From positions 1 through 43,801 of the IMG/VR virus record IMGVR_UViG_3300012926_000008: 43,801 nucleotides of DNA. One strand, given 5' to 3'. The DNA comes from a virus. The position numbers and the translations under genes are program-made. The notes under the pieces are model-generated. The model did not search any database. It was not told the origin of the DNA and saw only the letters and a program-made list of their open reading frames with translations. Each line of letters starts with the position of its first letter. Within the stretch, counting starts at the first letter, position 1. Below are positions 5,211 through 43,801 of this stretch, in pieces.

Positions 5211-5570
5211 ATGGCCACCGTAACGAACACCACCCTCGTCGACGACATGGACGGCACGCCTACCGGGGCGTCGCTCGTCACCTTCTCTGTCGACGGTTTC
5301 AGCTACGAAATCGACCTGACCGGCGCGAACAAGGAGAAGCTGTACAACGCGCTGGAGCCGTTCATGGAAGCAGGCCGGCAAATCCGGCAGGACACCGCGA
5401 AGGCTAAGGCACCCCGTAACGGCCGTCAGCCTGCCCGTACCGACCCGGAGCAGCTTGCCGCTATCAGGGAGTGGGCTCGGAATGCGGGCCATCAGGTGAG
5501 CAACCGTGGCCGAATCAAGGCGAGCATTCAGGACGCGTACAACCAGGCGCATCAGGAGGCGACAGCATGA
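5211..5570 (+). CDS. lsr2: Lsr2-like nucleoid-associated protein
   Basis: The product has 119 residues. The N-terminal half (TFSVDGFSYEIDLTGANKEK, then LYNALEPFMEAGR) matches the Lsr2 dimerisation domain. The C-terminal half (IREWARNAGHQVSNRGRIKA) matches its DNA-binding domain, including the R99-G100-R101 AT-hook-like motif that inserts into the minor groove. Lsr2 is the actinobacterial H-NS analogue that silences AT-rich foreign DNA. A phage copy may compact phage DNA, interfere with host silencing or modulate lysogeny; that role is inferred. A TGGAG ribosome site precedes the ATG. It is coupled to the DUF397 gene. Confidence 0.9.
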   Translation: MATVTNTTLVDDMDGTPTGASLVTFSVDGFSYEIDLTGANKEKLYNALEPFMEAGRQIRQDTAKAKAPRNGRQPARTDPEQLAAIREWARNAGHQVSNRGRIKASIQDAYNQAHQEATA

Positions 5571-5815
5571 CCGGGATTCAGTGGCGTAAATCCAGCTACT
5601 CGCAGGGCAACGGGAACTGCGTACAGGTCGGGTGGGCAAAGTCGTCCTTCAGTAACAGCGGCGCATGCGTAGAGACCCGCCGTGACGGCGACGGCGACAT
5701 CCTGATCAGGGATACGAAGCTAGGCGACGCCAGCCCTGTCCTGCGGTTCACGCCTGCCGAGTTTGCAGCGTGGGTCAAGGGTTGCGCCGCCGGGGAATTC
5801 GATCTACCCGCCTAG
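5567..5815 (+). CDS. DUF397 domain protein with duplicated N-terminal motif
   Basis: The product has 82 residues from the ATG in an ATGA overlap with the Lsr2-like gene. WRKSSYSQGNGNCVQVG and, 17 residues later, AKSSFSNSGACVETR are two copies of the DUF397 opening. They are followed by ILIRDTKLGD, PVLRFTPAEFAAWV and GEFDLP, which complete the domain. DUF397 proteins are abundant in Streptomyces and relatives, where they usually pair with XRE-type regulators of development. In a phage, next to Lsr2, it may engage host regulators; this is inference. No XRE partner is adjacent. Confidence 0.85.
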   Translation: MTGIQWRKSSYSQGNGNCVQVGWAKSSFSNSGACVETRRDGDGDILIRDTKLGDASPVLRFTPAEFAAWVKGCAAGEFDLPA

Positions 5816-5856
5816 CCCCTTGACAGGTAGTCACTAGGCCGTTTAGGGTTTCACTG
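5816..5856 (+). promoter_or_regulatory. Operator-promoter copy 3, driving the structured RNA region
   Basis: TTGACAGGTAGTCAC (5820-5834) is a palindrome with one arm mismatch. TTGACA at 5820-5825 is followed after 18 bases by TAGGGT (5844-5849). Transcription would start near 5856, beside the first inverted repeat (5858). The next protein gene begins 780 bases downstream and has its own promoter, so this promoter appears to serve a non-coding transcript. Confidence 0.65.
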
Positions 5857-5857
5857 A

Positions 5858-5914
5858 ACGTCAGCGGTTCAACCCATCAGCCGAGTGCTGTGCAGTTGTC
5901 CCACCCGCTGACGT
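5858..5914 (+). repeat. Perfect 10-bp inverted repeat at the predicted 5' end of the RNA
   Basis: ACGTCAGCGG at 5858-5867 pairs with CCGCTGACGT at 5905-5914, enclosing 37 bases that include a small CAGC/GCTG hairpin. It begins at the predicted start of transcription from operator copy 3, so it would cap the RNA's 5' end. Confidence 0.7.
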
Positions 5915-5915
5915 A

Positions 5916-5979
5916 GGCCAGATAGGTTCGCCGATGGATTGATCACCTGAGGCGTCGCCGTTCGATTCGGCGGATGGCC
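5916..5979 (+). ncRNA. tRNA-like element 1 (T-arm with partial acceptor stem)
   Basis: CGCCG-TTCGATT-CGGCG at 5956-5972 is a textbook T-arm. The seven bases after it (GATGGCC) pair over five positions with GGCCA at 5916-5920. Between them only AGGT/ACCT (5924-5927 with 5945-5948) could form another arm, so the element is about 64 bases, too short for a normal tRNA. It may be a remnant or an armless tRNA-like RNA. Confidence 0.4.
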
Positions 5980-6048
5980 GCTGCGGAGAAGTTGCTACGG
6001 AGAGACGGCCTGAAAGCCGACTCATGACCGTACTGGCTGTTGAAAGAC

Positions 6049-6068
6049 CGCTACCCGACGGGGTAGCG
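6049..6068 (+). terminator. Strong hairpin, possible terminator or processing site
   Basis: CGCTACCC pairs perfectly with GGGTAGCG around a GACG tetraloop, and TTTT occurs about 11 bases after the stem. The U-tract is too far for a textbook intrinsic terminator, so an RNA-processing or stabilising role is equally possible. Confidence 0.45.
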
Positions 6069-6182
6069 TCAGCCCAACTTTTCCCTTGAACCCTAGGGCA
6101 GCATGAACAGACATGCGCTCCGTGGATGCGGCCGCATGAAGCGGGGAGATTCAGTGCGATACTGACGCTAGGGGCTAGGTTG

Positions 6183-6223
6183 CCAACGTCCCATGCTCGC
6201 GAGAGTGTGTCTAAAAACGTTGG
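6183..6223 (+). repeat. 7-bp inverted repeat of acceptor-stem size
   Basis: CCAACGT at 6183-6189 pairs perfectly with ACGTTGG at 6217-6223. The 27-base interior contains the palindrome CTCGCGAG. It lies directly before tRNA-like element 2. Confidence 0.6.
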
Positions 6224-6224
6224 G

Positions 6225-6283
6225 GTGTGTGGCCGCTGCAGCGGACCGGTTAAGAGCGGGGTTCAAGTCCCCGCCCACACGCA
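6225..6283 (+). ncRNA. tRNA-like element 2, lacking an anticodon arm
   Basis: CGGGG-TTCAAGT-CCCCG (6257-6273) is a canonical T-arm. The next seven bases, CCCACAC (6274-6280), pair with GTGTGTG (6225-6231) at six of seven positions, followed by GCA. GGACCGGTTAAGAG (6243-6256) resembles a D-loop side. Only 25 bases lie between the acceptor 5' strand and the T-arm, so no normal anticodon arm fits. This is a truncated tRNA gene or a tRNA-like RNA. Confidence 0.5.
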
Positions 6284-6357
6284 AGGACGCCCACGGTCCG
6301 ATAACCGCTCCATCACAGTGGGGGTTAACTCCTAGTCGTCCTCCGGGACTGGCTAGG

Positions 6358-6456
6358 CTTGAACGTGGTCACGGCGACAAGGCCCGGTGTGGTTCATCCC
6401 TCCCGAACCCACGGACACCTGCCAGTAGACATCCTGGTTCGCCGTGACCGTTCAAG
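6358..6456 (+). repeat. Long imperfect inverted repeat (18 pairs, 2-base bulge)
   Basis: The arm at 6358-6377 pairs with 6439-6456 apart from a 2-base bulge (TG) in the left arm. The 61-base interior contains a second nested stem: GGTGT and GGTTC on the left with GAACC and ACACC on the right. Such a long near-perfect stem is unlikely by chance and indicates a folded RNA. Confidence 0.7.
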
Positions 6457-6602
6457 GGCCGGAAGATGCGGAAGTTGGGGCGGCTCCCATAGGTGGCGCA
6501 GCGGCTAGGGAATCGCTGGTTCGTCCTTCTCCCTAGCTGCGATAGGCCAGCATTCCGAGGCTGGGTTCCGGGTTCGATTCCCGGTGCCGCATCTTCCGGT
6601 CC
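6456..6602 (+). ncRNA. tRNA-like element 3 with extended closing stem
   Basis: A 16-pair stem (6456-6471 with 6587-6602, one G-T pair) closes an interior with a TGGG/CCCA hairpin, a long bulged stem (CGCAG and CTAGGGA with TCCCTAG and CTGCG), CCAGC-ATTCCGAG-GCTGG (6548-6565) and the T-arm CCGGG-TTCGATT-CCCGG (6568-6584). The order resembles a tRNA carrying an insertion. An alternative 7-base acceptor (6467-6473 with 6585-6591) has one mismatch. No CCA is encoded. The anticodon cannot be assigned with confidence. Confidence 0.5.
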
Positions 6603-6631
6603 TTTGACTACCGGTCAACTATGATCAGTGC
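6603..6631 (+). promoter_or_regulatory. Operator copy 4 and leaderless terminase promoter
   Basis: The perfect palindrome TTGACTACCGGTCAA (6604-6618) lies immediately before TATGAT (6620-6625), the best -10 in the window. Six bases later is the terminase ATG (6632). The palindrome sits between the -35 and -10 positions rather than supplying the -35, so a bound protein would block polymerase. No ribosome site exists, so the mRNA is probably leaderless. Confidence 0.7.
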
Positions 6632-9157
6632 ATGACTGCTGGCCGCCTTTCCGTGTGGGAGATGGCCGCCGCGAAGCTGGAGGGAACGCTGCGACTCGCG
6701 AAAGACGCGGCGACACCCGGCGAACTGGCCGGGATTCTTGACCCGCAGACTGTGCAAACCCCCGCATTGGAGCTGATCGACCAGCGGCTAGTTGAGGCCA
6801 GTAAGCCGTACGGTCGGCTGATGGTGGCGCTGGCACCTCAGGAAGGTAAGGCTCTCGCCCTAGATACGCCTGTGGCTACCGTTGACGGCTGGTCCACGAT
6901 GGGCGCGCTTCGGGTCGGCGACCAAGTTTTCGACCGCAACGGCGACCCCTGCGCGGTCACGTGGCTGTCTCCGGTCTGGACTGACCGCCCCTGCTACACG
7001 GTGCGTGCCGGTGATGGTGAGGCCATCGTGGCAGATGCTGCACACGAGTGGATCGGGAAGGTCTCTCGCAACAACCCCCGTGAGCGAGTGCACGAGACAA
7101 CTGACCTAGCCATTCGGCGAGCCAAAAACTTCCAGATCACGGGTCCCGCTTCTCTTAATCTGCCCGACGTTGATGTACCGCTAGACCCCTACGTTCTTGG
7201 CGTCTGGCTAGGAGACGGTCACTCACTAGGCGCTCGCCTAACCAGCCATTTAGACGATGTGGCAGTGCGTGACCGACTTGCGGATGCTGGTTGGCCTGTC
7301 CGAAAAGATCAGTCCAAGTACGGCTACAGTTTCGCCGCTGCGCATGAACAGGGCCCCAAGGGCAGCCGCTTCCGTCAGGCCCTAAAGCAACTCGACTTGA
7401 TCCAAAATAAGCACATCCCCACTGCTTACTTGCGTGGATCAGAGAAGCAGAGGCTAGCCCTGCTTCAGGGCCTAGTGGACACCGATGGGTACGTCGACCC
7501 GCGAGGTCAAGTGGAGTTCTGCACCATGTCTCGCCGGATCGCTGAAGACGTCGTGCATCTCGTGTTCAGCCTTGGCGCTAAGGCCACTCTCCGAACGGGC
7601 CGGGCAACTCTCAACGGCAAAGATTGCGGCGAGAAGTACCGCGTGAGGTTCTTCCGCAAGGGCGCTGCGCACCTGCCCCGCAAGGCTGAGCGGTGTGCAG
7701 ACTCAAGTGTTGCCCGAGTCCGGTACGTCTGGGCTGAGGAATCCGCATCGGTCCCCGTCCGATGCATAGAGGTCGACAGCGCGGACCACACGTTCCTAGC
7801 TGGACGCACCCTACTGCCAACCCGAAACAGCACGCGTTGCGCGATGTACTTCCCGCTGTGGCTGCTGATGCGAAACCCGGATCTGCGGATCGCTATCGCC
7901 TCCTACGAGTCGACGATCGCCCGTCGCTGGGGTCGCGCCATCCGCAACCTGATCATCTCCCATCCGGAACTCGGGTTGAAGGTGAAAGGCGACACGGCTG
8001 CTGCGCATGAGTGGGCGTTGGACGGGAAGCATCCGAAAGACAGCAAGGGTTACGAGTCGCCGCATCGTGGTGGCCTGATCACTGCCGGGTTGGATGCTGC
8101 GATCACCGGGCGACCCGTAGATGTGTTGATCATCGATGACCCAGTGAAGGACCGTGCGCAAGCCGAGTCGCAGGTGTACCGGGAACGTGCATGGGACTGG
8201 TGGACCGACGCCGCGCGTCCCCGGTTCGGGCCGGGTGCGATCGTGGTGGTGGTGCAAACACGTTGGCATGAGGACGACTTGACGGGGCGTCTACAGGTCC
8301 GTGACGCTGACACGTGGACCGTGCTGAACGTCCCCACACAGGCAGACCATCGGCCCGAGAAAGGCGAGACAGACCCGTTAGGGCGCGAACCGGGCGAGTA
8401 CATGATCTCAGCTCGCGGTAACCGCATGCCGGACTGGCTCGCCCAGCAGAAATCCCCATCCACATGGGCGGCGCTGTATCAGGGGAAACCAGCGCCGGCT
8501 GAGGGCACGCTGCTGAAACGGCCGTACTGGGTGTACTACGACACCCCGAAAGCGATCCGGCAGCCGGACGGCACGATGCTCGCGCTCGGCGCCGATGAGG
8601 TGATCCAGTCGTGGGACTGCGCATTCAAAGACACGAAAGCCTCCGACTACGTGGTGTGCCAGGTGTGGGGACGTTGGGGTAACGACGCGTACCTGCTGGA
8701 TCAGGTGCATGAACGGTTGTCGTTCACAGGCACCGTGGAGGCAGTGAAACGCGTCTCGAAGGAGTGGCCGCAAACCCGGTTGAAGCTCGTGGAGGACAAG
8801 GCGAACGGTACCGCCGTAATCGACCATCTGCGGCGGGAGGTCACGGGGCTCGTGCCGGTGCAGGTGAGGGACGGCAAGTACGCCCGAGCGGTCGCGGTGT
8901 CGCCGTTCATCGAGTCGCGGCACGCGTTCATCCCGTCAGAGAATCTGTCCCGATGGGTGCAGGGCTTCGTCGATGAGTGCGCGACGTTCCCGAACAGCAC
9001 CAACGATGACCAGGTTGATGCCATGACGCAAGCTCTAGACCGACTACTCGGCCATCCGGTGAAGGTGCTGGTTCGTCGCCCTCCGCAGCAGTTGAATTTG
9101 CCGTCGGGGGTGGGTGCGGCGCTGGGTGGGCAGGTGCTAGGTAACCGATACCGCTAG
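6632..9157 (+). CDS. terL: Terminase large subunit with in-frame intein
   Basis: The precursor has 841 residues. Removing residues 74-399 leaves a 515-residue terminase, a normal length. The packaging ATPase has a split P-loop (APQEGK at 68-73, joined to STRC at 400-403 after splicing), Walker B VDVLIIDD (496-503) and the coupling motif VVVVQTRWHEDDL. The C-terminal RNase H-like nuclease shows D662 (SWDCAFKD), E721 (LVEDKANG) and D796 (NDDQVDAM). The protein pumps DNA into the prohead through the portal and cuts concatemers. It has its own leaderless promoter. No small terminase gene is obvious nearby. The protein is inactive unless the intein is excised. Confidence 0.95.
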   Translation: MTAGRLSVWEMAAAKLEGTLRLAKDAATPGELAGILDPQTVQTPALELIDQRLVEASKPYGRLMVALAPQEGKALALDTPVATVDGWSTMGALRVGDQVFDRNGDPCAVTWLSPVWTDRPCYTVRAGDGEAIVADAAHEWIGKVSRNNPRERVHETTDLAIRRAKNFQITGPASLNLPDVDVPLDPYVLGVWLGDGHSLGARLTSHLDDVAVRDRLADAGWPVRKDQSKYGYSFAAAHEQGPKGSRFRQALKQLDLIQNKHIPTAYLRGSEKQRLALLQGLVDTDGYVDPRGQVEFCTMSRRIAEDVVHLVFSLGAKATLRTGRATLNGKDCGEKYRVRFFRKGAAHLPRKAERCADSSVARVRYVWAEESASVPVRCIEVDSADHTFLAGRTLLPTRNSTRCAMYFPLWLLMRNPDLRIAIASYESTIARRWGRAIRNLIISHPELGLKVKGDTAAAHEWALDGKHPKDSKGYESPHRGGLITAGLDAAITGRPVDVLIIDDPVKDRAQAESQVYRERAWDWWTDAARPRFGPGAIVVVVQTRWHEDDLTGRLQVRDADTWTVLNVPTQADHRPEKGETDPLGREPGEYMISARGNRMPDWLAQQKSPSTWAALYQGKPAPAEGTLLKRPYWVYYDTPKAIRQPDGTMLALGADEVIQSWDCAFKDTKASDYVVCQVWGRWGNDAYLLDQVHERLSFTGTVEAVKRVSKEWPQTRLKLVEDKANGTAVIDHLRREVTGLVPVQVRDGKYARAVAVSPFIESRHAFIPSENLSRWVQGFVDECATFPNSTNDDQVDAMTQALDRLLGHPVKVLVRRPPQQLNLPSGVGAALGGQVLGNRYR
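6851..7828 (+). mobile_element. Intein with LAGLIDADG homing endonuclease, class 3 features
   Basis: Residues 74-399 of the terminase precursor (326 aa) interrupt the P-loop between Lys73 and Ser400. The intein starts with Ala74, not Cys or Ser, and ends PTRN with Asn399 before the Ser nucleophile. W140 after the block B His138 (AAHEW), C378 in block F (VRCIEVD) and T397 in block G form the W-C-T set that defines class 3 inteins, which splice through the block F Cys. VLGVWLGDG (188-196) and LLQGLVDTDG (277-286) are the two LAGLIDADG motifs of the endonuclease. Assignment is by motif only. Confidence 0.9.
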
Positions 9158-12385: not shown

Positions 12386-14173
12386 ATGGCCGCGCCCATC
12401 ATCGCCAGCAACGGCACGATCGCTGACACCACCACTACTACCGTCGCTGTGCCGGTGCCGTCAGGGGTGGCGTCCGGGTCGCTGATCGTCGCCTACATCT
12501 ACGCAGCATGGTTCAACGCCACCGTTCCGGATGCGACCGCGTTCACCGCGCCAACTGGTGCAGGTACATGGTTCATCAAGGACATCGTCACGCACGCTGT
12601 TAACGGTGCGAACAACCACGCGCTGATCATCGCCTACAAGTACGCCACCGGGTCGGACAGCGGCACCTACTCGTGGACGGTCAACACTGTCGGTGGCACG
12701 GCCCCGGCGTTCGCGTCAGGTGTCGCAGGACGGGTCACGGGCGGTGCGACCTCGGGTGACCCGTTCGCCGATGCGATCCAGAAAGGGTCCTCGGCTGACG
12801 GCACGTCCTCGGTCACGGTCGCCTCGTTCACCCCTGGCGGGGACAACACTCTGCTGGCCGCATACGCGATGGATGCGGATTCGCCGGCCACGGTCAGTCT
12901 CCCCGGTGGTTGGACGTCGCTGGCGTCCAGCAACGGTGCGGGCGCGTCAGGCAGTTCAGTCCTCGGTGATCTCACCCAGGGCACTGCCGCAGCGACCGGG
13001 ACGCTGACGTTCAGCAGCACGTCCTCGACGTTCAGCAAACTCGCCCTGGTCGCCACGTTCCGGGCGCCGTTCGTCCCGTTGCCACCATCGGGGGCGACCC
13101 GCCGTCGAATCCAACTACCGCGCCGTCGGCCCCGTCCCGCCGCAGCACCGATCAGGGTCGCGGGCGTCCTGCCGCCGCAGCCGGCTGCACGCCACCGAAC
13201 GTGGCTGCCGCCGCGCAGGCCCCGCACGGGGCAGCCCGTCCCGGCCCCGGTCGTGGTCGTCACAATCCAAGCGCTTCCACCACAGCCGGGACGCCGTCAG
13301 CCTCGACTGCTCACCGCGTCTCGGCATCGCGCCGCTCAAGTCGTCCCAGCGCAGGTTGTCGTCCAAACTGCCCAAGCATTGCCTGCGCAACCTGCCCGGC
13401 GCCCACGGCTATCACCGATCCAAGCGAAGCACCGGGCAGCGCAGCCAGTCCCGGCCGCTGCAGTCGTGGTCACGGTTCAGGCCCTGCCGCCGCAGCCGAC
13501 CCGCCGACCCGGACGGCCGCTACTCGCGCGTCGGCCACGCGCCACGCTGCCGCCACTTACAGTCACCGTCACACTTCCACCGCAGACCGTGCGGCGACGG
13601 GGGTGGGTGCCGGTCCGCAGACCGCGCCCGGGTCAGCCAGTGCCAGCGCAGGTTGCGGTTGTCACGGTTCAGCCGCTACCACCGCAGCCGACAAGACGCC
13701 CACCTCGGGTGGCGCTAGTACCTAGGCGCGGCGCTATCCAGCCTGTCCCGACCGTAACAGTTGTGGTCACAGTGCAAGCCCTACCGCCGCAGCCGACCCG
13801 CCGTTTGCTCCGGCCGCTGCTGGTTCGGCGTGCCCGTGTCACAGTGCCGCTCACGGTCACTGTCACATTACCCCCGCCTGCAGTTCGGCGCCGGGCGTGG
13901 CCGCTCACTGCTCGCCGTGCGCGTCAGGCTCAGCCGGTACCCGCGCAGGTCGTCATCGTCACCGCACAGTCGTTGCCACTCCAGCCGACAAGGCGCCTCC
14001 GGTGGCTGCCTCAGCGGCGACGTAACCAACTCGGTCAGCCCGTCCCACTGCCCGGGGTGACACCCCCTCCGGTCCGCGACGTGGACGTTGTCAACGTCGA
14101 GGTTGAGCCGGGGCGGCTGTCCGTGTCGGTAGAATCAGACCGAGGATCAGCCATGACGGAAGGTAACCCATGA
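12386..14173 (+). CDS. Putative virion adhesin with long Pro/Arg/Val repeat tail
   Basis: The product has 595 residues. Residues 1-228 are a Thr/Ala/Gly-rich beta domain of the kind seen in phage tail or head-fibre proteins. Residues about 231-565 are nine to ten imperfect repeats of 29-35 residues, each of the form LPPQPTRRPxRPLLxRR then QPVPAQVVVVTVQA. The tail alternates basic and hydrophobic strands. The last 30 residues are acidic. It ends in an ATGA overlap with the next gene. A role in binding the cell wall or DNA is possible; nothing here proves it. Confidence 0.7.
   Translation: MAAPIIASNGTIADTTTTTVAVPVPSGVASGSLIVAYIYAAWFNATVPDATAFTAPTGAGTWFIKDIVTHAVNGANNHALIIAYKYATGSDSGTYSWTVNTVGGTAPAFASGVAGRVTGGATSGDPFADAIQKGSSADGTSSVTVASFTPGGDNTLLAAYAMDADSPATVSLPGGWTSLASSNGAGASGSSVLGDLTQGTAAATGTLTFSSTSSTFSKLALVATFRAPFVPLPPSGATRRRIQLPRRRPRPAAAPIRVAGVLPPQPAARHRTWLPPRRPRTGQPVPAPVVVVTIQALPPQPGRRQPRLLTASRHRAAQVVPAQVVVQTAQALPAQPARRPRLSPIQAKHRAAQPVPAAAVVVTVQALPPQPTRRPGRPLLARRPRATLPPLTVTVTLPPQTVRRRGWVPVRRPRPGQPVPAQVAVVTVQPLPPQPTRRPPRVALVPRRGAIQPVPTVTVVVTVQALPPQPTRRLLRPLLVRRARVTVPLTVTVTLPPPAVRRRAWPLTARRARQAQPVPAQVVIVTAQSLPLQPTRRLRWLPQRRRNQLGQPVPLPGVTPPPVRDVDVVNVEVEPGRLSVSVESDRGSAMTEGNP
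13076..14085 (+). repeat. Protein-coding tandem repeats (9-10 units of about 87-105 bp)
   Basis: The repeat units share LPPQP, RR and VVVTVQA blocks. Long units of about 35 residues alternate with short ones of about 30. At DNA level they have diverged, so they are old or under protein-level selection. Confidence 0.75.
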
Positions 14174-14559: not shown

Positions 14560-15591
14560 GTGAAAGTCCACCTGATCCCGATGGACGACGGCGCATGCTC
14601 GTACTACAGGATTCGGGAGCCGGTGCGGGTCGCTAGGTCGATCGGGGTGGATGCGGAATGGTTCGCGGAGATCCAAGTTGTCGCCACCCATCACCCGTCC
14701 GGCGTGACGGAAGTGCACGAACTGCGGCATGACTGCGATGTGTTGGTGCTGCAACGGCCGTTGATGCAGGCCACGTACGCGATCGCGGTGCAGGCGCAGC
14801 GGCAGGGCATCAAAGTGGTGGTGGAACTGGATGACGACCTGCATGCGGTGCACCGCCGAAACACGGTTGAACCGTTCATTGATCCGAAGAAACAGCCGTG
14901 GCATAACCGGGATTGGGCCGCGAAAACCATTGCCATCGCTGACCTGCTCACTGTCAGCACTCCCGCGTTGACCCGGTACGGCCCTGAGAAGGCCGTGGTG
15001 GTCCGTAACCGGCTACCGGAAGCGTGTCTAGCGTTGCGTCCTGCGGTGTCGCCAGCGAGGCGCACAGTGGGCTGGACAGGCACCCTGGGTGTGCACCCGG
15101 CTGATCTGCAAGCAACTGAGGGTGGGTTGGCGAAGGTGCAGGCGCCGATCTCGATCGTGGGTGACGATAGGGGCGTCGCGGACGCGTTGAAGGTACCGCC
15201 TGGCCGGGTGTCGTTGGGGGCTACGTGGGACCCGGACATTCCCGCCTACTGGAAGTTGATCGCCGAAAACATGGGTGTCGGGATCGCACCTTTAGAGATG
15301 TCTGCGTTTAATGAGAGCAAAAGTGCGCTCAAGCCCACCGAGATGTGTGCTTTGGGTATTCCGTTCGTTGCGTCCCCCACGTCCGAATACAAGCGGATGG
15401 TGGCCGAATCCGGCGCCGGGCTGATCGCCCAGTCACGCGGCCAATGGGCTCGCATGGTGAACCGGCTCCTCAACGACGATGCGGAGTACGAGCGGATGCG
15501 GCAGCGAGGCGCCGAATGGGCAGCCGACCAGACGCTAGAGCGACACATCGGGTCATTCGTACACGCTTGGGAGAGAGCAGCAGATTCATGA
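14560..15591 (+). CDS. Glycosyltransferase, GT-B-like
   Basis: The product has 343 residues. The C-terminal half shows the usual nucleotide-sugar side of a GT4-like enzyme: VGWTGTLGVHPADL (about 167-180), an LSxVGDD-like strand (PISIVGDDRG), ESKSALKPTEMCALGIPFVA (about 249-268) and a closing helix. The enzyme would move a sugar from a nucleotide donor, probably onto a virion protein given the neighbours. It starts at GTG 14560 with no ribosome site and leads the coupled cassette. Confidence 0.8.
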   Translation: MKVHLIPMDDGACSYYRIREPVRVARSIGVDAEWFAEIQVVATHHPSGVTEVHELRHDCDVLVLQRPLMQATYAIAVQAQRQGIKVVVELDDDLHAVHRRNTVEPFIDPKKQPWHNRDWAAKTIAIADLLTVSTPALTRYGPEKAVVVRNRLPEACLALRPAVSPARRTVGWTGTLGVHPADLQATEGGLAKVQAPISIVGDDRGVADALKVPPGRVSLGATWDPDIPAYWKLIAENMGVGIAPLEMSAFNESKSALKPTEMCALGIPFVASPTSEYKRMVAESGAGLIAQSRGQWARMVNRLLNDDAEYERMRQRGAEWAADQTLERHIGSFVHAWERAADS

Positions 15592-16172
15592 TCCCCGGGG
15601 TAAGCGTGATCATTCCAACGGTGGCGCCGCGTGCGAACACGCTGCAGCGAGCCTTGGCCTCCGTCACTGCACAAACCCTGCAACCCGATACGGTGATCGT
15701 TCAAGAAGACACTGAACGGGAAGGAGCAGCGGCTACCCGGCAGCGGGCGCAAGACCGTGTGGTTACCGAATACACGTGTCCACTCGATGACGACGACGAG
15801 CTGCTACCGATGCACTTGGAACACCTGCTCGCCGAGGTTCAGCGCACCAATGCTGACCTAGTGTTTCCTTGGTACGAAGTGCGTGGCGGGGGCGACCCTA
15901 TGCCAGAAGCGTTCGGCCGTAACTGGGAGGACTACCTAACTGAATTCGGCCCGTACCAGTTCCCGGTCACGTTCCTCGCCCGCACTGAGGTGATCCGGGA
16001 CGCGGGGGGATGGCGCGGCATGGACGGTACTGTGGCCAGTCAAGAAGACTGGGTATTAATTCTGAGCCTCGTGTCAATGGGCGCAAAGATCGTGCACCTT
16101 CCGGAGCGCACTTGGCTTTGGATGCATCATGGTGCCAACTCCTCCGGACGTCCGGAGAATATCCGGTGGTGA
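15588..16172 (+). CDS. Glycosyltransferase family 2-like
   Basis: The product has 194 residues from the ATG in an ATGA overlap. The GT-A opening VSVIIPTVAPRANTLQRALA is followed by QTLQPDTVIVQED, then by CPLDDDDELLPMHLEHLLAE, where the Asp cluster would bind the metal and UDP- or dTDP-sugar. EDW near residue 152 fits the ED(W/Y) acceptor-side motif. It closely resembles the next gene and may have arisen by duplication. Confidence 0.85.
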   Translation: MIPGVSVIIPTVAPRANTLQRALASVTAQTLQPDTVIVQEDTEREGAAATRQRAQDRVVTEYTCPLDDDDELLPMHLEHLLAEVQRTNADLVFPWYEVRGGGDPMPEAFGRNWEDYLTEFGPYQFPVTFLARTEVIRDAGGWRGMDGTVASQEDWVLILSLVSMGAKIVHLPERTWLWMHHGANSSGRPENIRW

Positions 16173-16846
16173 CAGCACGCAGCGGTGACGTGACCATCGT
16201 CATCCCCACTATTCCGGGCCGCGAAGATCTACTAGCGCGAGCGGTGGGGTCAGTTAATGCTCAAACGGTTCCTGTCGCGGCAGTCATCATCCAGTTAGAT
16301 GCGGACCGTCGTGGTGCTGCCGCGACACGCAACGCGGCGTTGCCACGTGTGCAAACCCCTTTCCTGGGGTGGCTTGATGATGATGATGTTTTACTCCCGG
16401 ATCATGTACAGACACTAGTGGACGGGCAGAACGAGTCCGGCGCCGACCTCGTCTTCACCTACGCCGAGTTCGTCGGAGGGCGCGACCCGCTCGCCTGCTG
16501 CCAGGACGGTGTCCTCATAGCTGAGCCGATCAACGTTCCGTTCGGTCCGCAGCAACGCGACCATCTCGATTCGCGCCTAGGTCCGCTCTGCTCATGGTGC
16601 GGCGCTCATCGCGGCGGCTTCATCCCCATCACTCATATGGTCCGCACTGATGCCATACGTGCTACTAGCGGGTTCCCGGAACCTAACTCGATGCCGGAAG
16701 TACCAGTGTCCGGTGACTGCGAGGATTACCTAGCCCTGTTGAAGCTGTTGGATGCTGGCGCCGAGTTTCATCACGTCGTCGGCAAACGAACATGGCAGTA
16801 TTTCATGCACGGAGCAAACACGGCGGGCAGAGGAATAGCTTCATGA
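16169..16846 (+). CDS. Glycosyltransferase family 2-like, paralogue of the previous gene
   Basis: The GTG at 16169 lies in a GTGA overlap. VTIVIPTIPGREDLLARAVG, then AAATRNAAL and FLGWLDDDDVLLPDH, mirror the neighbouring enzyme block for block. CEDYLALLKLLDAGAEFHHV corresponds to its EDW segment. A Cys-containing insert (LGPLCSWCGAHRGG) is specific to this copy. The duplication suggests two sugars are added in sequence; the donors are unknown. Confidence 0.85.
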   Translation: MTARSGDVTIVIPTIPGREDLLARAVGSVNAQTVPVAAVIIQLDADRRGAAATRNAALPRVQTPFLGWLDDDDVLLPDHVQTLVDGQNESGADLVFTYAEFVGGRDPLACCQDGVLIAEPINVPFGPQQRDHLDSRLGPLCSWCGAHRGGFIPITHMVRTDAIRATSGFPEPNSMPEVPVSGDCEDYLALLKLLDAGAEFHHVVGKRTWQYFMHGANTAGRGIAS

Positions 16847-17502
16847 CACCACCTAGGTTCGCGGTCGTCCTCACGCACAACCGTCCAGCGCTGCTGTGGG
16901 AATGTGTTGAGTCGGTGTTCCCGCAAGTAGACCACGTGGTCATCGTTGATAATGCTTCTGATCCGCCCGTGTCTGATGATGAGTGGCCAGCGAACGTCAC
17001 TGTTGTTCATGACCTGTTGCAGCCCCCGAACCTTGCCTACCTGTGGAACAGTCAACTAGACAGCATTCGCGACTCGCGGCCCGGCGCTGAATGGGATGTA
17101 GCGCTTCTGTGCGATGACGTGTTCATGCCGTCGGATTGGTTCGACCGGGTGTCCGGGGCTCTACGGGCACACTCAACAGCGGCAGCGGCGTCTACCCACT
17201 CGTACGGCCCGATCGTGGAGCCGTACCTGTTGACGCAACTTTCCAACGGCACCGACAGGATGTGCCCGTGGTGTTTCATGCTCCCCGGTGAACGGGGTCT
17301 ACGAGCCAATGAGGCTTTGCATTGGTGGTGGACCGACACTCACATCGACATGCTGGCTAGGCAGAGCGGCGGAACCCTGATTGTGCCCGGAGCGATCGCC
17401 ACCAACGAGCGCATCGGCGAGTACACCAACAGCAAGCCGGAACTCGCTGAGCAGGCTGGACGCGACGGCGACACGTTCCAATCGATATGGGGATTTCGGT
17501 GA
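16843..17502 (+). CDS. Glycosyltransferase family 2-like
   Basis: The product has 219 residues, starting at the ATG in an ATGA overlap. FAVVLTHNRPALLWECVESV and VDHVVIVDNASDPP are the classic GT2 opening with the N-A-S loop. LCDDVFMPSDWF carries the DxD-like pair. The C-terminus (WWTDTHIDMLARQSGG) would close the active site. Its position inside the cassette fits a stepwise glycan assembly. Confidence 0.8.
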   Translation: MTPPRFAVVLTHNRPALLWECVESVFPQVDHVVIVDNASDPPVSDDEWPANVTVVHDLLQPPNLAYLWNSQLDSIRDSRPGAEWDVALLCDDVFMPSDWFDRVSGALRAHSTAAAASTHSYGPIVEPYLLTQLSNGTDRMCPWCFMLPGERGLRANEALHWWWTDTHIDMLARQSGGTLIVPGAIATNERIGEYTNSKPELAEQAGRDGDTFQSIWGFR

Positions 17503-18119
17503 CAGTTGGCTACGGCGTGTGTGTCGGTTCGTGGGACAAGTTCGTGGCGAACGTCGCCCCCCGCACCACTGGCCGGCCGATGATGGCGCTATCTGGCCAA
17601 TCGGGCATCGTTCACGCCTACAACACCATCGTTGCCGCTGCGTTCGCGAGGCACGACCTGGATGCGCTGATTCTGCTGCATGACGACCTGGAACTGACTG
17701 ACCCTGATGCGGAAGCGAAACTGCTCGCACCGCTAGTCGACCCCGATGTTGGCTTAGTGGGTGTCGCTGGCGGTGGTGGCGATTCCATCTACTGGTGGAA
17801 CCACAATCCCGTAGGTCATCAACTCACTGACGTGATGAACATCGACTTCGGGCAGCGGGAAGGCGACGTCACCCTTATCGAGGGCAGCGTCATGGTGTTG
17901 TCGCCGTGGCTACTAGCCAACTTGCGGTTCGACCCCCGGTTCACCGGCTACCACGGCTACGACGAGATCGGCATGCAGGTTCGGGCAGCCGGGAAGCGTG
18001 TCGTCGTCGTGGACGTGGACACGCACCACCACAATCCTATGGGGTACGCGTCGGAAGAGTCAGCGGAGATGTGCCGTCTGGCTGCGCAGTTGTATCAAGA
18101 GAAATGGGGTTTGGGATGA
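17499..18119 (+). CDS. Glycosyltransferase-like protein, GT-A fold
   Basis: The GTG at 17499 lies in a GTGA overlap and gives 206 residues. LDALILLHDDLELTDPDAEA contains the Asp pair of GT-A enzymes, and VTLIEGSVMVLSPWLL with FDPRFTGYHGYDEIGMQVRA forms the acceptor and catalytic region. HHHNPMGY near the end could bind the metal. It resembles small bacterial 'glycosyltransferase-like' domains acting on surface sugars. Confidence 0.75.
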   Translation: MTVGYGVCVGSWDKFVANVAPRTTGRPMMALSGQSGIVHAYNTIVAAAFARHDLDALILLHDDLELTDPDAEAKLLAPLVDPDVGLVGVAGGGGDSIYWWNHNPVGHQLTDVMNIDFGQREGDVTLIEGSVMVLSPWLLANLRFDPRFTGYHGYDEIGMQVRAAGKRVVVVDVDTHHHNPMGYASEESAEMCRLAAQLYQEKWGLG

Positions 18120-18760
18120 CGGTGCCGTTCACGGTGCGGCCCTACCCGTTGGACGAGTACCCGTTCACGGAGTTAGTGGCTGAATCACTCGGAGTGGATG
18201 ACCTGTCTAACCTGTCAGCGGATTTGCCGCGCCGCACTTGGCGGACTGATCAGCAAAGCCCGTGGCACGCCTCGTTTTACAGTGGGTTCGAAGCGTGGCG
18301 CGGACTGTTCGCTGGGTTCGTCCGAGACGAGATCGGTCCGCTCGTGAATGAACCTTTCTACTGGCAGGCGGTGCCAACGTTCCGGGTGCATCTCCCCGGT
18401 AATGTCGCGGTCGGCGAATTCCACACTGACGCCCAATACCACCATCCGGTCGATGAGCGGTCGTTCTGGTTACCACTTACCCCCGCCTACGACACGTGCA
18501 GTGTGTGGGTGGAAGCCGACGACGGCGTGCTACACGCCCCCGATGTTGATCCCGGGCATTTAGTGGAGTTCTCGGCGGCGACACGACGCCACGGCAACAA
18601 AATCAACGAGACGGGTCACACTCGGGTCAGTTTCGATTTTCGTGTGCTGCCGGTGCGGCTTCTCCCCCCAGAAGAGGGAGCGCCTACTGAGCACACGAAG
18701 CTGCGGTTCGTCCCGGGCGGCTACTACGCGGCAGACGCGATGGAAGGTGCGGGGTCATGA
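18116..18760 (+). CDS. StrG-like 2-oxoglutarate/Fe(II) oxygenase family protein
   Basis: The product has 214 residues. VAVGEFHTDAQYHHPVDERS places H103 and D105; RRHGNKINETGHTRVSFDFR places H159 and R170. Together these form the HxD...H...R iron and 2-oxoglutarate set. The sequence resembles StrG from streptomycin gene clusters, a protein of uncertain exact role. Here it may oxidise a sugar or a modified residue. The clustering with glycosyltransferases supports a decoration role; the substrate is not known. Confidence 0.75.
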   Translation: MTVPFTVRPYPLDEYPFTELVAESLGVDDLSNLSADLPRRTWRTDQQSPWHASFYSGFEAWRGLFAGFVRDEIGPLVNEPFYWQAVPTFRVHLPGNVAVGEFHTDAQYHHPVDERSFWLPLTPAYDTCSVWVEADDGVLHAPDVDPGHLVEFSAATRRHGNKINETGHTRVSFDFRVLPVRLLPPEEGAPTEHTKLRFVPGGYYAADAMEGAGS

Positions 18761-19965
18761 GACGTGAACAGTGCGGGTCCTGCGGGTACGACGACCTAGA
18801 GCTATTCCTTGATTTGGGGATGTCCCCGGTAGCGGACGCCTACACGGCATCGGCTGACGAACTGTCAGAAACGCATCCGTTGCAGCTCGCGGTGTGCAAC
18901 GGATGCCGGCTCGTGCAACTGCTGGACGTGGTCGACCACGACGTGCTGTTCGGCACCGGCTATTCGTTCTACTCGTCAGCGTCGCCCCCGCTGTCCGAGT
19001 ACCACGCCTCCTACGCCGGCCAAGTCCTGACTCGGCATGGCGAGTTGGCAAAACGGTTCACGGTGGAGATCGGCTGCAACGACGGTGACCTGCTCCGGCA
19101 CTTCGCCGCCGCTAAATGCCCCGTGTTGGGTGTCGATCCGGCAGGTGGTCCCGTCGACCATGCCCGTAAGCGTGGCCTCGACGTGGTCAACGTCCCGTTC
19201 GGGAAACTGATCGCCGAGCAACTTCTCAATGAGCATGGCCCGGCTGGTGTGATCATCGCGAACCACGTCTTGGCTCATGTCGAATCAGTCTCTGACGTCT
19301 TGGACGGCATCCAACATTTGCTGGCTGCGGACGGTGTCGCCTACATCGAGGTGCAGTACCTGCCGGATCTGTTGGTGAACAACGCGTTCGATCTGGTGTA
19401 TCACGAGCACCGGAACTTCTTCTCCCTGACCAGTTTAGAAAGCGCGGCTCAACGGTGGGGCCTGCATGTCGCGGACGCTGAACTGACCGATAGGCAGGGC
19501 GGTTCACTCAGGGTGGTGTTGGCGCGGTCCGTGTCGCCGTCTGAGCGGGTGGAACGTATCCGGGCATCAGAGGCGTGGCTACGGGGGATGGGGGCTTACC
19601 GTGGCTTCCAAGGCCGTGCGGACCGTATCCGTGTCCGGCTGCTCGACGCGGTGGATGAGGCCACGTACAACGGTCTGCTGGTCGGTTACGGCGCCCCCGC
19701 GAAAGCGACGACGCTGCTGAACTTCTGCGGCCTCACCGCAGACCACGTCGACTACGTGGTCGATTCCACTCCCGCGAAACAGGGGCGGTTCATCCCGGGC
19801 ACCGGGATACCGATCAAACCGCCTACGCCGAAGGTACTTGACCCGGCAGGCACGGTGCTGGTTCTGGCATGGAACTACGCCCCACAGATCATGCGCAACA
19901 ACCTAGCGTTCACGATGCGTGGCGGGCGTTGGCTGATACCCATTCCGAGTCCGGTGCTTCTATGA
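18757..19965 (+). CDS. Sugar C-methyltransferase-like SAM enzyme
   Basis: The product has 402 residues in three parts. An N-terminal zinc module has C6, C9, C47 and C50. A SAM-binding Rossmann domain follows with VEIGCNDGDLLRHF (about 103-116). The C-terminal domain includes GYGAPAKATTLLNFCG and ends LVLAWNYAPQI. This architecture is that of TylCIII/NovU-type enzymes that methylate carbon on dTDP-sugars in antibiotic pathways. It probably methylates a sugar used by the neighbouring transferases. Confidence 0.85.
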   Translation: MRREQCGSCGYDDLELFLDLGMSPVADAYTASADELSETHPLQLAVCNGCRLVQLLDVVDHDVLFGTGYSFYSSASPPLSEYHASYAGQVLTRHGELAKRFTVEIGCNDGDLLRHFAAAKCPVLGVDPAGGPVDHARKRGLDVVNVPFGKLIAEQLLNEHGPAGVIIANHVLAHVESVSDVLDGIQHLLAADGVAYIEVQYLPDLLVNNAFDLVYHEHRNFFSLTSLESAAQRWGLHVADAELTDRQGGSLRVVLARSVSPSERVERIRASEAWLRGMGAYRGFQGRADRIRVRLLDAVDEATYNGLLVGYGAPAKATTLLNFCGLTADHVDYVVDSTPAKQGRFIPGTGIPIKPPTPKVLDPAGTVLVLAWNYAPQIMRNNLAFTMRGGRWLIPIPSPVLL

Positions 19966-20489
19966 GGCTCAATCTCGGATGCGGCGACAGGTATGCGGAA
20001 GCTTGGACGAACGTCGATTTCGGTTCCCCGCACCGCAAGGATCAAGAGGTGGACTTGACGGGGCCGTTGCCGTGGGAGCCGGGAAGCGTTACCCATGCCT
20101 ACCTGGGGCACGTCCTAGAGCACCTGACGGTCGATCAATGTACAGATCTGCTGACCCGGTTGTTGCCATGCATGGACCCAACGGGCGCGTTGATGATGAT
20201 CGTCGGACCGGACGTCCCCCTAGCGGAACAGATGATCGCCGACGGCACATTCGACTTCACCTACCACAGTCTGGACTCGCTCAGGTACGGCGCCGGGCGC
20301 TGGTCCGGGGACGTACATCTATGGGAATGCTCAGGTGCAGCCGTAGCTCAGTTGTGCCGTGACGCAGGCTGGCCGATCGTGACCGATATTGGGATCAGAT
20401 CGGTTGATCAGACGTGGCCCGTGGCCGACAGAACCCCCCAGTGGCAGCTCGCGGTCCGCGCCTACACGGGGACCCCGACGTCTTGGTAG
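19962..20489 (+). CDS. Class I SAM-dependent methyltransferase
   Basis: The product has 175 residues from the ATG in an ATGA overlap. MRLNLGCGDRYAEAWTNVDF is the SAM-binding loop and acidic strand, and AYLGHVLEHL is the family's motif at the end of strand 4. Small enzymes of this kind often O-methylate sugars or proteins. It is the last gene of the coupled cassette. Confidence 0.85.
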   Translation: MRLNLGCGDRYAEAWTNVDFGSPHRKDQEVDLTGPLPWEPGSVTHAYLGHVLEHLTVDQCTDLLTRLLPCMDPTGALMMIVGPDVPLAEQMIADGTFDFTYHSLDSLRYGAGRWSGDVHLWECSGAAVAQLCRDAGWPIVTDIGIRSVDQTWPVADRTPQWQLAVRAYTGTPTSW

Positions 20490-42621: not shown

Positions 42622-43801
42622 TCATTTGCCACCCCGGTCTAACTTCGCATGCTGCGCTGGCCACAGACCCGTGGCGATTTTATGAAGCTCATTGCATTGG
42701 CCCTTGACGGCGTACTCATTATGCACGTACTTGGATAGCAAACGGACACATCGTGACCAGTCACCACTTTCACCCCACCGCACGCGAGCGGAGCCTTTCC
42801 CGTGAGTCCAATACTCGCGAAGTTGGTCAGGTGTCCGTGTATGCGCGGCAACGTCAGCCACCACTGGCTCAGCGCTAGCCTTGACCGGCGCCTTCACCGG
42901 AGGTGCCTTAGGCGGCGCGGGGGTACCGGCAGGCGGGAACTGCTTAGCCAACTGTGCGTCGATAGCAGCAATCTGCGCCTTCAACTGGGCGTCCAGTTTC
43001 GCTTTACTAGCAGCGTTCGCTTTCGTTGCTGCCGTATGCCGCGCTGTTTCCTTCGCGGTTGCTTCCGCACGGCGGGTTTGCCAGGCGAGACGCCGTTGCG
43101 CTTCCGCTACCCGCATCGCCTTTCGATCCGCCGGGCTAGCAGCCGCGTACTGTCGCATGTAGTCGATACGGTGCTGCTGCTCCCCGAGCAGCGACGTGGA
43201 TTGCGCGTCCAGGAACTTCTGATGCTGCGCCGTTTCCGTCGCCGATGCAGTTTTCTCTTTCGCCGCTACCGCGTTACGCAACGCTGTCTTCTGCACTTGC
43301 GCGGCCTTAGTCGCAGCCGCCTTCTTAGCGGCAGCGGCTTTCTTCGCGGCAGCCGAGCCACCCCCGCCGCCTGCACCTTTCGGGGTTTTGTACGGCTTCG
43401 CTATCACCGTTTTCGCTGTTGGCGCGGCATGCGGTGCGGTCGTTTTCCGGTTCGCCTCTAACGCGTTCGCCTGACTACCACCGCCGGCAGTCCATTTCCC
43501 GGTCGGGTCGCGTGATTCTGACGGGTTGAACGCCGCTGTGACCGGGCCGAGGGGGATGTTGCGTTGGTCGGCGCCGTGCCACACCCCGACCTGATCGAAG
43601 TTGAGTGGGGTGCCGCCGAGACCGTCTGTTGGTACCGGGTCAGCCCCGTACTGCCTGGTCACGTGCGGGGTGAACGAGTGGTCGGACTGCTGGGTAACAC
43701 CGTTACCGGCGAGATGGTCGATGAGTGACTGCCGTGCCTCCGGTAGGCCCGGCACATCGGCGAGCGCCACCTGTACCGGGTTGTCGGCGTTGTCGCTTCC
43801 C
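42622..43801 (-). CDS. MuF/portal-associated protein C-terminus with 2H-phosphoesterase-like motif, partial
   Basis: The frame is open to the window edge, so the N-terminus is missing; 393 residues are visible. HSFTPHVTRQYG near the start is an HxT motif of the 2H phosphoesterase family. A long Ala/Lys helical region follows (AAAKKAAAAKKAAATKAAQV). The C-terminal SGDWSRCVRLLSKYVHNEYA, VKGQCNELHKIATGLWPAQH resembles the end of actinophage MuF or protease fusion proteins. It probably takes part in prohead assembly. It is the first visible gene of the structural operon, which continues beyond the window. Confidence 0.7.
   Translation of the reverse strand, partial: GSDNADNPVQVALADVPGLPEARQSLIDHLAGNGVTQQSDHSFTPHVTRQYGADPVPTDGLGGTPLNFDQVGVWHGADQRNIPLGPVTAAFNPSESRDPTGKWTAGGGSQANALEANRKTTAPHAAPTAKTVIAKPYKTPKGAGGGGGSAAAKKAAAAKKAAATKAAQVQKTALRNAVAAKEKTASATETAQHQKFLDAQSTSLLGEQQHRIDYMRQYAAASPADRKAMRVAEAQRRLAWQTRRAEATAKETARHTAATKANAASKAKLDAQLKAQIAAIDAQLAKQFPPAGTPAPPKAPPVKAPVKASAEPVVADVAAHTRTPDQLREYWTHGKGSARVRWGESGDWSRCVRLLSKYVHNEYAVKGQCNELHKIATGLWPAQHAKLDRGGK

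What the first reader, a model, noticed from the sequence alone, without database searches (positions are those of the whole stretch)
5816..6631. Operator-driven structured non-coding region with tRNA-like elements
Between DUF397 and terminase lie about 780 bases without a gene, headed by operator copy 3 and closed by copy 4. The region contains a 10-bp, an 18-bp (one bulge) and a 16-bp inverted repeat, plus three hairpins with canonical T-loops. Element 2 has a 6/7 acceptor stem but no room for an anticodon arm; element 3 is too long. This could be decaying tRNAs, intron-like interrupted tRNAs, or an RNA that mimics tRNA.
Basis: partly seen in the sequence, partly recalled or inferred. Interest (0 to 1): 0.85.

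Follow-up and report, generated by a model that had tools for sequence, protein, structure and literature searches.

The report
Decayed phage tRNA array, new hairpin
The gene-free stretch is a transfer-RNA gene array that has mostly rotted away in this actinobacterial phage, between structured RNA pieces that are still conserved; one of these, a 27-base hairpin, belongs to a previously uncatalogued family found in many actinobacterial phages and plasmids.

Summary
In detail: 816 gene-free bases between DUF397 and terL, three inverted repeats, and three perfect T-arms found nowhere else in the window (expected 0.0025). Relatives explain it. A close relative (L002) has 25-30 real tRNA genes at this exact site; a third (L003) has none. 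The window's own elements score as no tRNA in Rfam: they are remnants of an array, not working tRNAs, introns or mimics. The hairpin is an 11-bp helix with a bulged U and a UCCG loop. It recurs, about once per genome, in 30 actinobacterial phage and plasmid loci, with strong covariation. It lies inside tRNA arrays (Myrna, Phabba), in leaders of NYN-domain genes, and before other genes. A search by NYN protein alone recovered it independently. It is not in Rfam. Function is inferred only: control of transcription elongation, or RNA processing.

The parts
5817..5852 (+). Operator-overlapping promoter: TTGACA, 18 nt, TAGGGT (operator copy 3)
   Evidence: Sequence; repeated motif; conserved in L002 and L003. 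The consensus scan did not list it because its -10 is weak.
5858..5914 (+). Head RNA: covarying outer stem of up to 10 bp around an almost invariant core GGTTCAACCMATCAGYCKAGTGCTGTGCAGTTGT
   Evidence: L003 94% identical; in L002 the stem is replaced by compensatory changes at 3 pairs while the core is kept; absent from other viral contigs at the pattern used
5956..5972 (+). T-arm 1 (CGCCG-TTCGATT-CGGCG), remnant of a tRNA (element 1)
   Evidence: surrounding fold not stable (z +0.7)
6000..6028 (+). Possible remnant of a tRNA-Cys anticodon arm (tentative)
   Evidence: Local resemblance to the L002 tRNA-Cys; alignment score within the shuffled range, so suggestive only
6225..6282 (+). Element 2: acceptor stem, D-arm-like part and T-arm, no anticodon arm; decayed tRNA
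   Evidence: sub-threshold mascRNA-like match, 24.3 bits against a gathering score of 42.5
6331..6357 (+). Conserved hairpin CCTAG-TC-GTCC-TCCG-GGAC-T-GG-CTAGG, 11 bp, bulged U, UCCG loop; member of the new family
   Evidence: R1 58.6 bits in the window; 29-sequence alignment with 6 covarying pairs
6367..6449 (+). Tail RNA: 11-bp closing stem and three-way junction
   Evidence: 93% identical in L002 and L003 although the start of terL is only 72% identical to L003; z -2.8 to -4.1
6456..6603 (+). Element 3: long inverted repeat around an interrupted tRNA-like unit with T-arm 3 (6568-6584)
   Evidence: not in L002 or L003 at this place
6605..6620 (+). Operator copy 4 upstream of terL (TTGACTACCGGTCAAC)

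Best explanation
The region is a former tRNA-gene array of an actinobacterial phage, sitting at a fixed site between an early promoter/operator and terL. Close relatives keep the array (L002), have none (L003), or, as here, keep broken pieces of it. The array was framed by structured RNA elements that selection still maintains although the tRNAs are gone: a head RNA behind the promoter, a tail RNA before the next promoter and, here and in L003, a 27-nt bulged-U hairpin. The most likely mechanism: one transcript starts at about 5850 and runs through head, tRNA segment, hairpin and tail. In the array-bearing form the tRNAs are cut out by the host's RNase P and RNase Z. The hairpin is a cis-acting RNA signal read by a host factor that controls elongation (attenuation or antitermination) or processing of untranslated or leader RNA. 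Shown: the homologous site, array present, broken or absent, conservation and covariation of the elements, one hairpin per genome, hairpins in tRNA arrays and in NYN-gene leaders. Inferred: transcription, processing and all functions of head, hairpin and tail. The stated confidence is for the decayed-array reading with conserved RNA elements; for the hairpin's role in elongation control it is about 0.35.
For: L002: 25 ARAGORN tRNAs (about 30 with lenient settings) at the same site, 17 over Rfam's cut-off; the window and L003 have none over it. Flanks homologous. Three perfect T-arms only here. Head and tail conserved more than flanking coding DNA; head stem with 3 compensatory pairs. Hairpin: 97.8% of cells paired, 25 double-changed cells against 4.1 in shuffles, slid controls 24-55% paired; members outside the model found at E 8e-11 and 2e-7; one per record in 17 of 17; all 47 tRNAs within 1 kb lie on its strand; a protein-only NYN search recovered it. 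A promoter-like match lies upstream in 6 of 29, random rate 0.02. U-tract after 17 of 30, absent in several tRNA-linked copies.
Against: Only three relatives of this locus are known, and L002 is a 5.9-kb fragment; the direction of change (loss rather than incomplete gain) is inferred. No individual L002 tRNA aligns to a window remnant above shuffled scores. L002 lacks the hairpin, so the hairpin is not needed for an array in this lineage. The tRNA association of the hairpin is partly a property of the contigs: 10 observed within 1 kb against 5.7 expected from positions in the same loci. No RNA data.
Confidence: 0.8

Rival explanations
1. Elements 1-3 are functional RNAs that mimic tRNA (decoys, or Y-RNA/mascRNA-like effectors) and are kept by selection.
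For: Element 2 has acceptor, D-like and T arms without an anticodon arm, giving a weak mascRNA-like score; element 3 is a long stem around a tRNA-like module, as in Y RNAs, and folds better than shuffles (z -4.3). Krypton555, which has the hairpin, has sub-threshold YrlA-like matches.
Against: Not conserved in either relative. YrlA score 12 bits against a cut-off of 69, and no TROVE/Ro60 gene in the record. A damaged tRNA array explains the parts more simply.
Confidence: 0.1
2. The hairpin 6331-6357 is only an intrinsic transcription terminator, its likeness across elements due to common descent or convergence.
For: GC-rich hairpin followed by at least 5 T in 8 bases in 17 of 30 copies; UNCG-type loops are usual in terminators (own knowledge).
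Against: 13 of 30 copies, the window's included, lack the U-tract yet keep loop, bulge and core letters; no terminator is called here. Several copies stand in front of a gene, 12-71 nt after a promoter-like sequence, where a plain terminator would silence it.
Confidence: 0.25
3. The hairpin is a recognition or cleavage site of an NYN-domain (PIN-like) ribonuclease: self-limiting in plasmid NYN genes, a processing site or decoy in phage arrays.
For: It lies in the leader of NYN genes in plasmids of three genera and in L295, which was found by protein alone. Host genomes can carry NYN proteins (control genomes).
Against: No NYN gene in the hairpin-bearing phage records searched other than L295, though several of these are fragments; the element also precedes capsid and other genes.
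Confidence: 0.2
4. The site is an acquisition hot spot, and the window shows an array under construction rather than in decay.
For: Array content differs completely among three relatives; L003 has none.
Against: The remnants are partial (no anticodon arm in element 2, an interruption in element 3), which fits decay; a newly acquired tRNA should be intact.
Confidence: 0.12

Closest known systems
Phage tRNA arrays (e.g. mycobacteriophages Myrna and Phabba; L002 here)
   Same: Same locus and strand as the L002 array; T-arms in the canonical form; the hairpin itself lies between tRNA genes in Myrna and Phabba
   Different: No element of the window passes Rfam's tRNA cut-off; most of the array is gone
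HK022 putRNA (protein-free antiterminator RNA; PMC9378689)
   Same: Works-like candidate: a short RNA structure with bulges, in phage leaders near early promoters, no partner protein gene shared by the bearers
   Different: put is about 70 nt with two stem-loops and acts on E. coli RNAP; this is one 27-nt hairpin, antitermination untested, no sequence link shown
Intrinsic terminators and leader attenuators
   Same: GC-rich hairpin, U-tract in 17 of 30 copies
   Different: Conserved loop, bulge and core; U-tract missing in the window's copy
mascRNA-menRNA (RF01684) and bacterial Y RNA (YrlA, RF02553)
   Same: tRNA-like fold with reduced or no anticodon arm
   Different: Scores far below gathering; no Ro60/TROVE gene; not conserved

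Membership tests
Functional tRNA gene | Scores above Rfam RF00005 gathering (29 bits) | tested here: not met
   No match in the record at E<=10, whereas 17 in L002 pass
Functional tRNA gene | Canonical T-arm | tested here: met
   Three perfect T-arms, expected 0.0025
Functional tRNA gene | Complete D, anticodon and acceptor arms | tested here: not met
   Element 2 lacks an anticodon arm; element 3 is accepted by ARAGORN only as an odd 94-nt tRNA-Ala
Remnant of a phage tRNA array | Homologous site in a close relative holds a tRNA array | tested here: met
   L002 1502-4311 between homologous DUF397 and terL
Remnant of a phage tRNA array | Individual remnants align to tRNAs of the relative | tested here: inconclusive
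   Scores within the shuffled range
Bacterial Y RNA (YrlA) | RF02553 gathering score and Ro60 (TROVE) partner | tested here: not met
   12.4 bits against 69; no TROVE
mascRNA-like | RF01684 gathering score | tested here: not met
   24.3 against 42.5 bits
Any catalogued RNA family (for hairpin, head, tail) | Match in Rfam 15 | tested here: not met
   None at gathering; none in the sense direction at these places at E<=10 in the window, none at the hairpin at E<=0.5 in relatives
Intrinsic terminator | GC hairpin followed by a U-tract | tested here: not met
   Window copy 2 T in 8; met in 17 of 30 family members
put-like antiterminator | Suppresses termination in cis without a protein | not testable with these tools
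   Needs transcription assays
put-like antiterminator | Two adjacent stem-loops of about 70 nt | tested here: not met
   Only one hairpin is shared by the family; some leaders have a further, dissimilar hairpin upstream

The most novel reading that the evidence does not exclude
The bulged-U/UCCG hairpin is a protein-free, RNA-only control element of actinobacterial RNA polymerase, shared by unrelated phages and plasmids, which lets polymerase pass through long untranslated tRNA arrays and leaders: an actinobacterial counterpart of HK022 put.
Probability: 0.15. Interest if true: 0.85.

Novelty: new variant of a known kind. Interest (0 to 1): 0.6.

Why it matters
It catches a phage tRNA array in three states (full, broken, absent) at one fixed site, which makes gain and loss of phage tRNAs testable. 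It also brings out a new, well-supported small RNA structure that links tRNA arrays, NYN-domain genes and leaders in actinobacterial phages and plasmids. If the hairpin acts on the host's RNA polymerase or on a host nuclease, it would be a shared regulatory device of mobile elements in this phylum.

Tried and rejected
Known RNA families: cmscan at gathering and at E<=10 gave only weak tRNA-like matches. DNA relatives in annotated phages: none for the region; head and tail only chance-level hits. Head and tail patterns hit only L002 and the L003 contig among 2.9 million viral contigs; the tail pattern hit nothing in 84,980 species genomes. Divergent terL relatives L004-L081 and genome loci L083-L104 gave no further copy of the locus. 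Y RNA idea: rejected. Sleepyhead L282, Pupper L283, L284, L285 and L115 score weakly and were not counted as members. Host chromosomes could not be searched with the model: the tool draws no kin for virus records. The motif string is not in the paper library.

Full report
CHECK. The window is a 43,801-base virus record. DUF397 ends at 5815 and terL begins at 6632. The gap has the stated inverted repeats, is headed by a promoter/operator copy at 5817 and closed by another at 6605, and the operator motif recurs across the window. Three perfect T-arms lie in it, all on the + strand; there is no other perfect one on either strand of the window, and shuffles of the region give a mean of 0.0025. ARAGORN accepts only element 3 (tRNA-Ala, 94 nt). 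Rfam's tRNA model accepts none.

RELATIVES. A search by terL found L002 (98% identical terL segment) and L003 (71%). Both keep the same neighbours. L002 has a tRNA array exactly here: 25 genes by ARAGORN, about 30 with lenient settings, 17 above Rfam's cut-off. L003 has no tRNA and no T-arm here. The simplest reading is one array site in three states, with the window in the broken state. Individual window fragments could not be matched to particular L002 tRNAs above shuffled scores, so descent from this very array is inferred from place and T-arms.

CONSERVED ELEMENTS. The parts shared by the relatives are not the tRNA-like ones. (i) The head RNA, 5858-5914: core almost letter-identical in three relatives, outer stem changed at three pairs with pairing kept in L002. 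(ii) The tail RNA, 6367-6449: about 93% identical in L002 and L003, while the start of terL is 88% and 72% identical; it folds into a closed three-way junction in all three with z -2.8 to -4.1. (iii) A hairpin at 6331-6357, in the window and L003.

THE HAIRPIN FAMILY. A weak blastn hit (E 0.1) led from window 6325-6360 to the spacers directly before tRNA-Thr genes in Mycobacterium phages Phabba and Myrna. Pattern scans and blastn then gave 30 loci in actinobacterial phages, prophages, plasmids and viral contigs; for contigs without a named host the actinobacterial origin is inferred. The alignment of 29 sequences shows an 11-bp helix, one bulged U and a UCCG loop. 97.8% of cells are paired, 6 pairs have changes on both sides, 25 double-changed cells against 4.1 in shuffles; slid partners give 24-55% paired. 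The covariance model built from the first 15 found members not in it: prophiGD102-1 (47 bits) and Krypton555 (35.7 bits). Every record searched whole has one full-length copy, apart from the weak L115. The strict pattern leaves four stem letters free, yet all 15 of its hits have complementary letters there.

CONTEXT. The hairpin lies inside tRNA arrays (Phabba, Myrna, L131), just before single tRNAs (L176, L281, L255, L257), in leaders of NYN-domain genes on Pseudonocardia, Rhodococcus and Clavibacter plasmids, before a capsid gene (L133), and elsewhere. An NYN-protein search of viral contigs, made without the motif, found a single contig, L295, and the hairpin is there about 33 nt before the match. 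By ARAGORN 12 of 29 loci have a tRNA within 3 kb, against 4 of 190 other viral loci; the Fisher test used 13, adding L127, whose tRNA was seen by Rfam only. The background loci are not matched for host, and within the same loci the excess is modest (10 against 5.7). All 47 tRNAs within 1 kb are on the hairpin's strand. Six of 29 have a promoter-like sequence just upstream against 2% of random stretches. 17 of 30 have a U-tract behind it, the window copy does not. No NYN gene is found in the phage records with the hairpin other than L295.

MECHANISM. Shown: array present, broken or absent at one site; conserved and covarying RNA structures around it. Inferred: a transcript from about 5850 through the region; RNase P/Z processing of the tRNAs in array-bearing relatives; the hairpin as a cis signal for elongation or processing. 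Because loop and bulge are kept even where the U-tract is lost, termination alone is unlikely to be what selection maintains; a ligand (RNA polymerase, a Nus factor or a nuclease) is more likely. I give elongation control (attenuation or antitermination) about 0.35, NYN-type nuclease recognition 0.2, plain terminator 0.25.

KNOWN OR NEW. Phage tRNA arrays and their proposed role against host tRNA nucleases are known (PMC10264068). HK022 putRNA is a known protein-free antiterminator (PMC9378689). The hairpin family, head RNA and tail RNA match nothing in Rfam 15 and the core string is absent from the paper library (that library lacks most subscription papers).

Noticed in passing
6632-9157: terL carries an intein with a LAGLIDADG homing endonuclease domain; the relative L002 appears to lack it (terL match of 1500 bases covering query residues 1-826).
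   Followed up: partly
5211-5570 and 5471-5815: Phage-borne Lsr2-like nucleoid protein followed by a DUF397 protein, directly before the RNA island.
   Followed up: no
796, 3447, 5817, 6605, 9158, 10116, 11596, 14528, 21016: A repeated operator-like palindrome CCCTTGACTANTAGTCAATAG overlapping the -35 box, reminiscent of dispersed repressor sites.
   Followed up: no
13214-13997: Five-copy repeats of about 65-85 nt inside the 595-aa ORF 12386-14173, which has no PHROG match and no phage homologue found.
   Followed up: no
14560-20489: Glycosyltransferases and a C-methyltransferase, perhaps for DNA or surface sugar modification.
   Followed up: no
L146 (Krypton555 41302-44344): Sub-threshold YrlA-like RNA match (38 bits at 42639-42703) downstream of a DUF7788/DUF2828 vWA 'RNA-binding protein' gene; perhaps a divergent Y RNA/Ro system.
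   Followed up: partly
L176, L227, L255, L278, L281: A DUF7341 (with or without DUF7340) gene repeatedly lies just upstream of the hairpin.
   Followed up: partly
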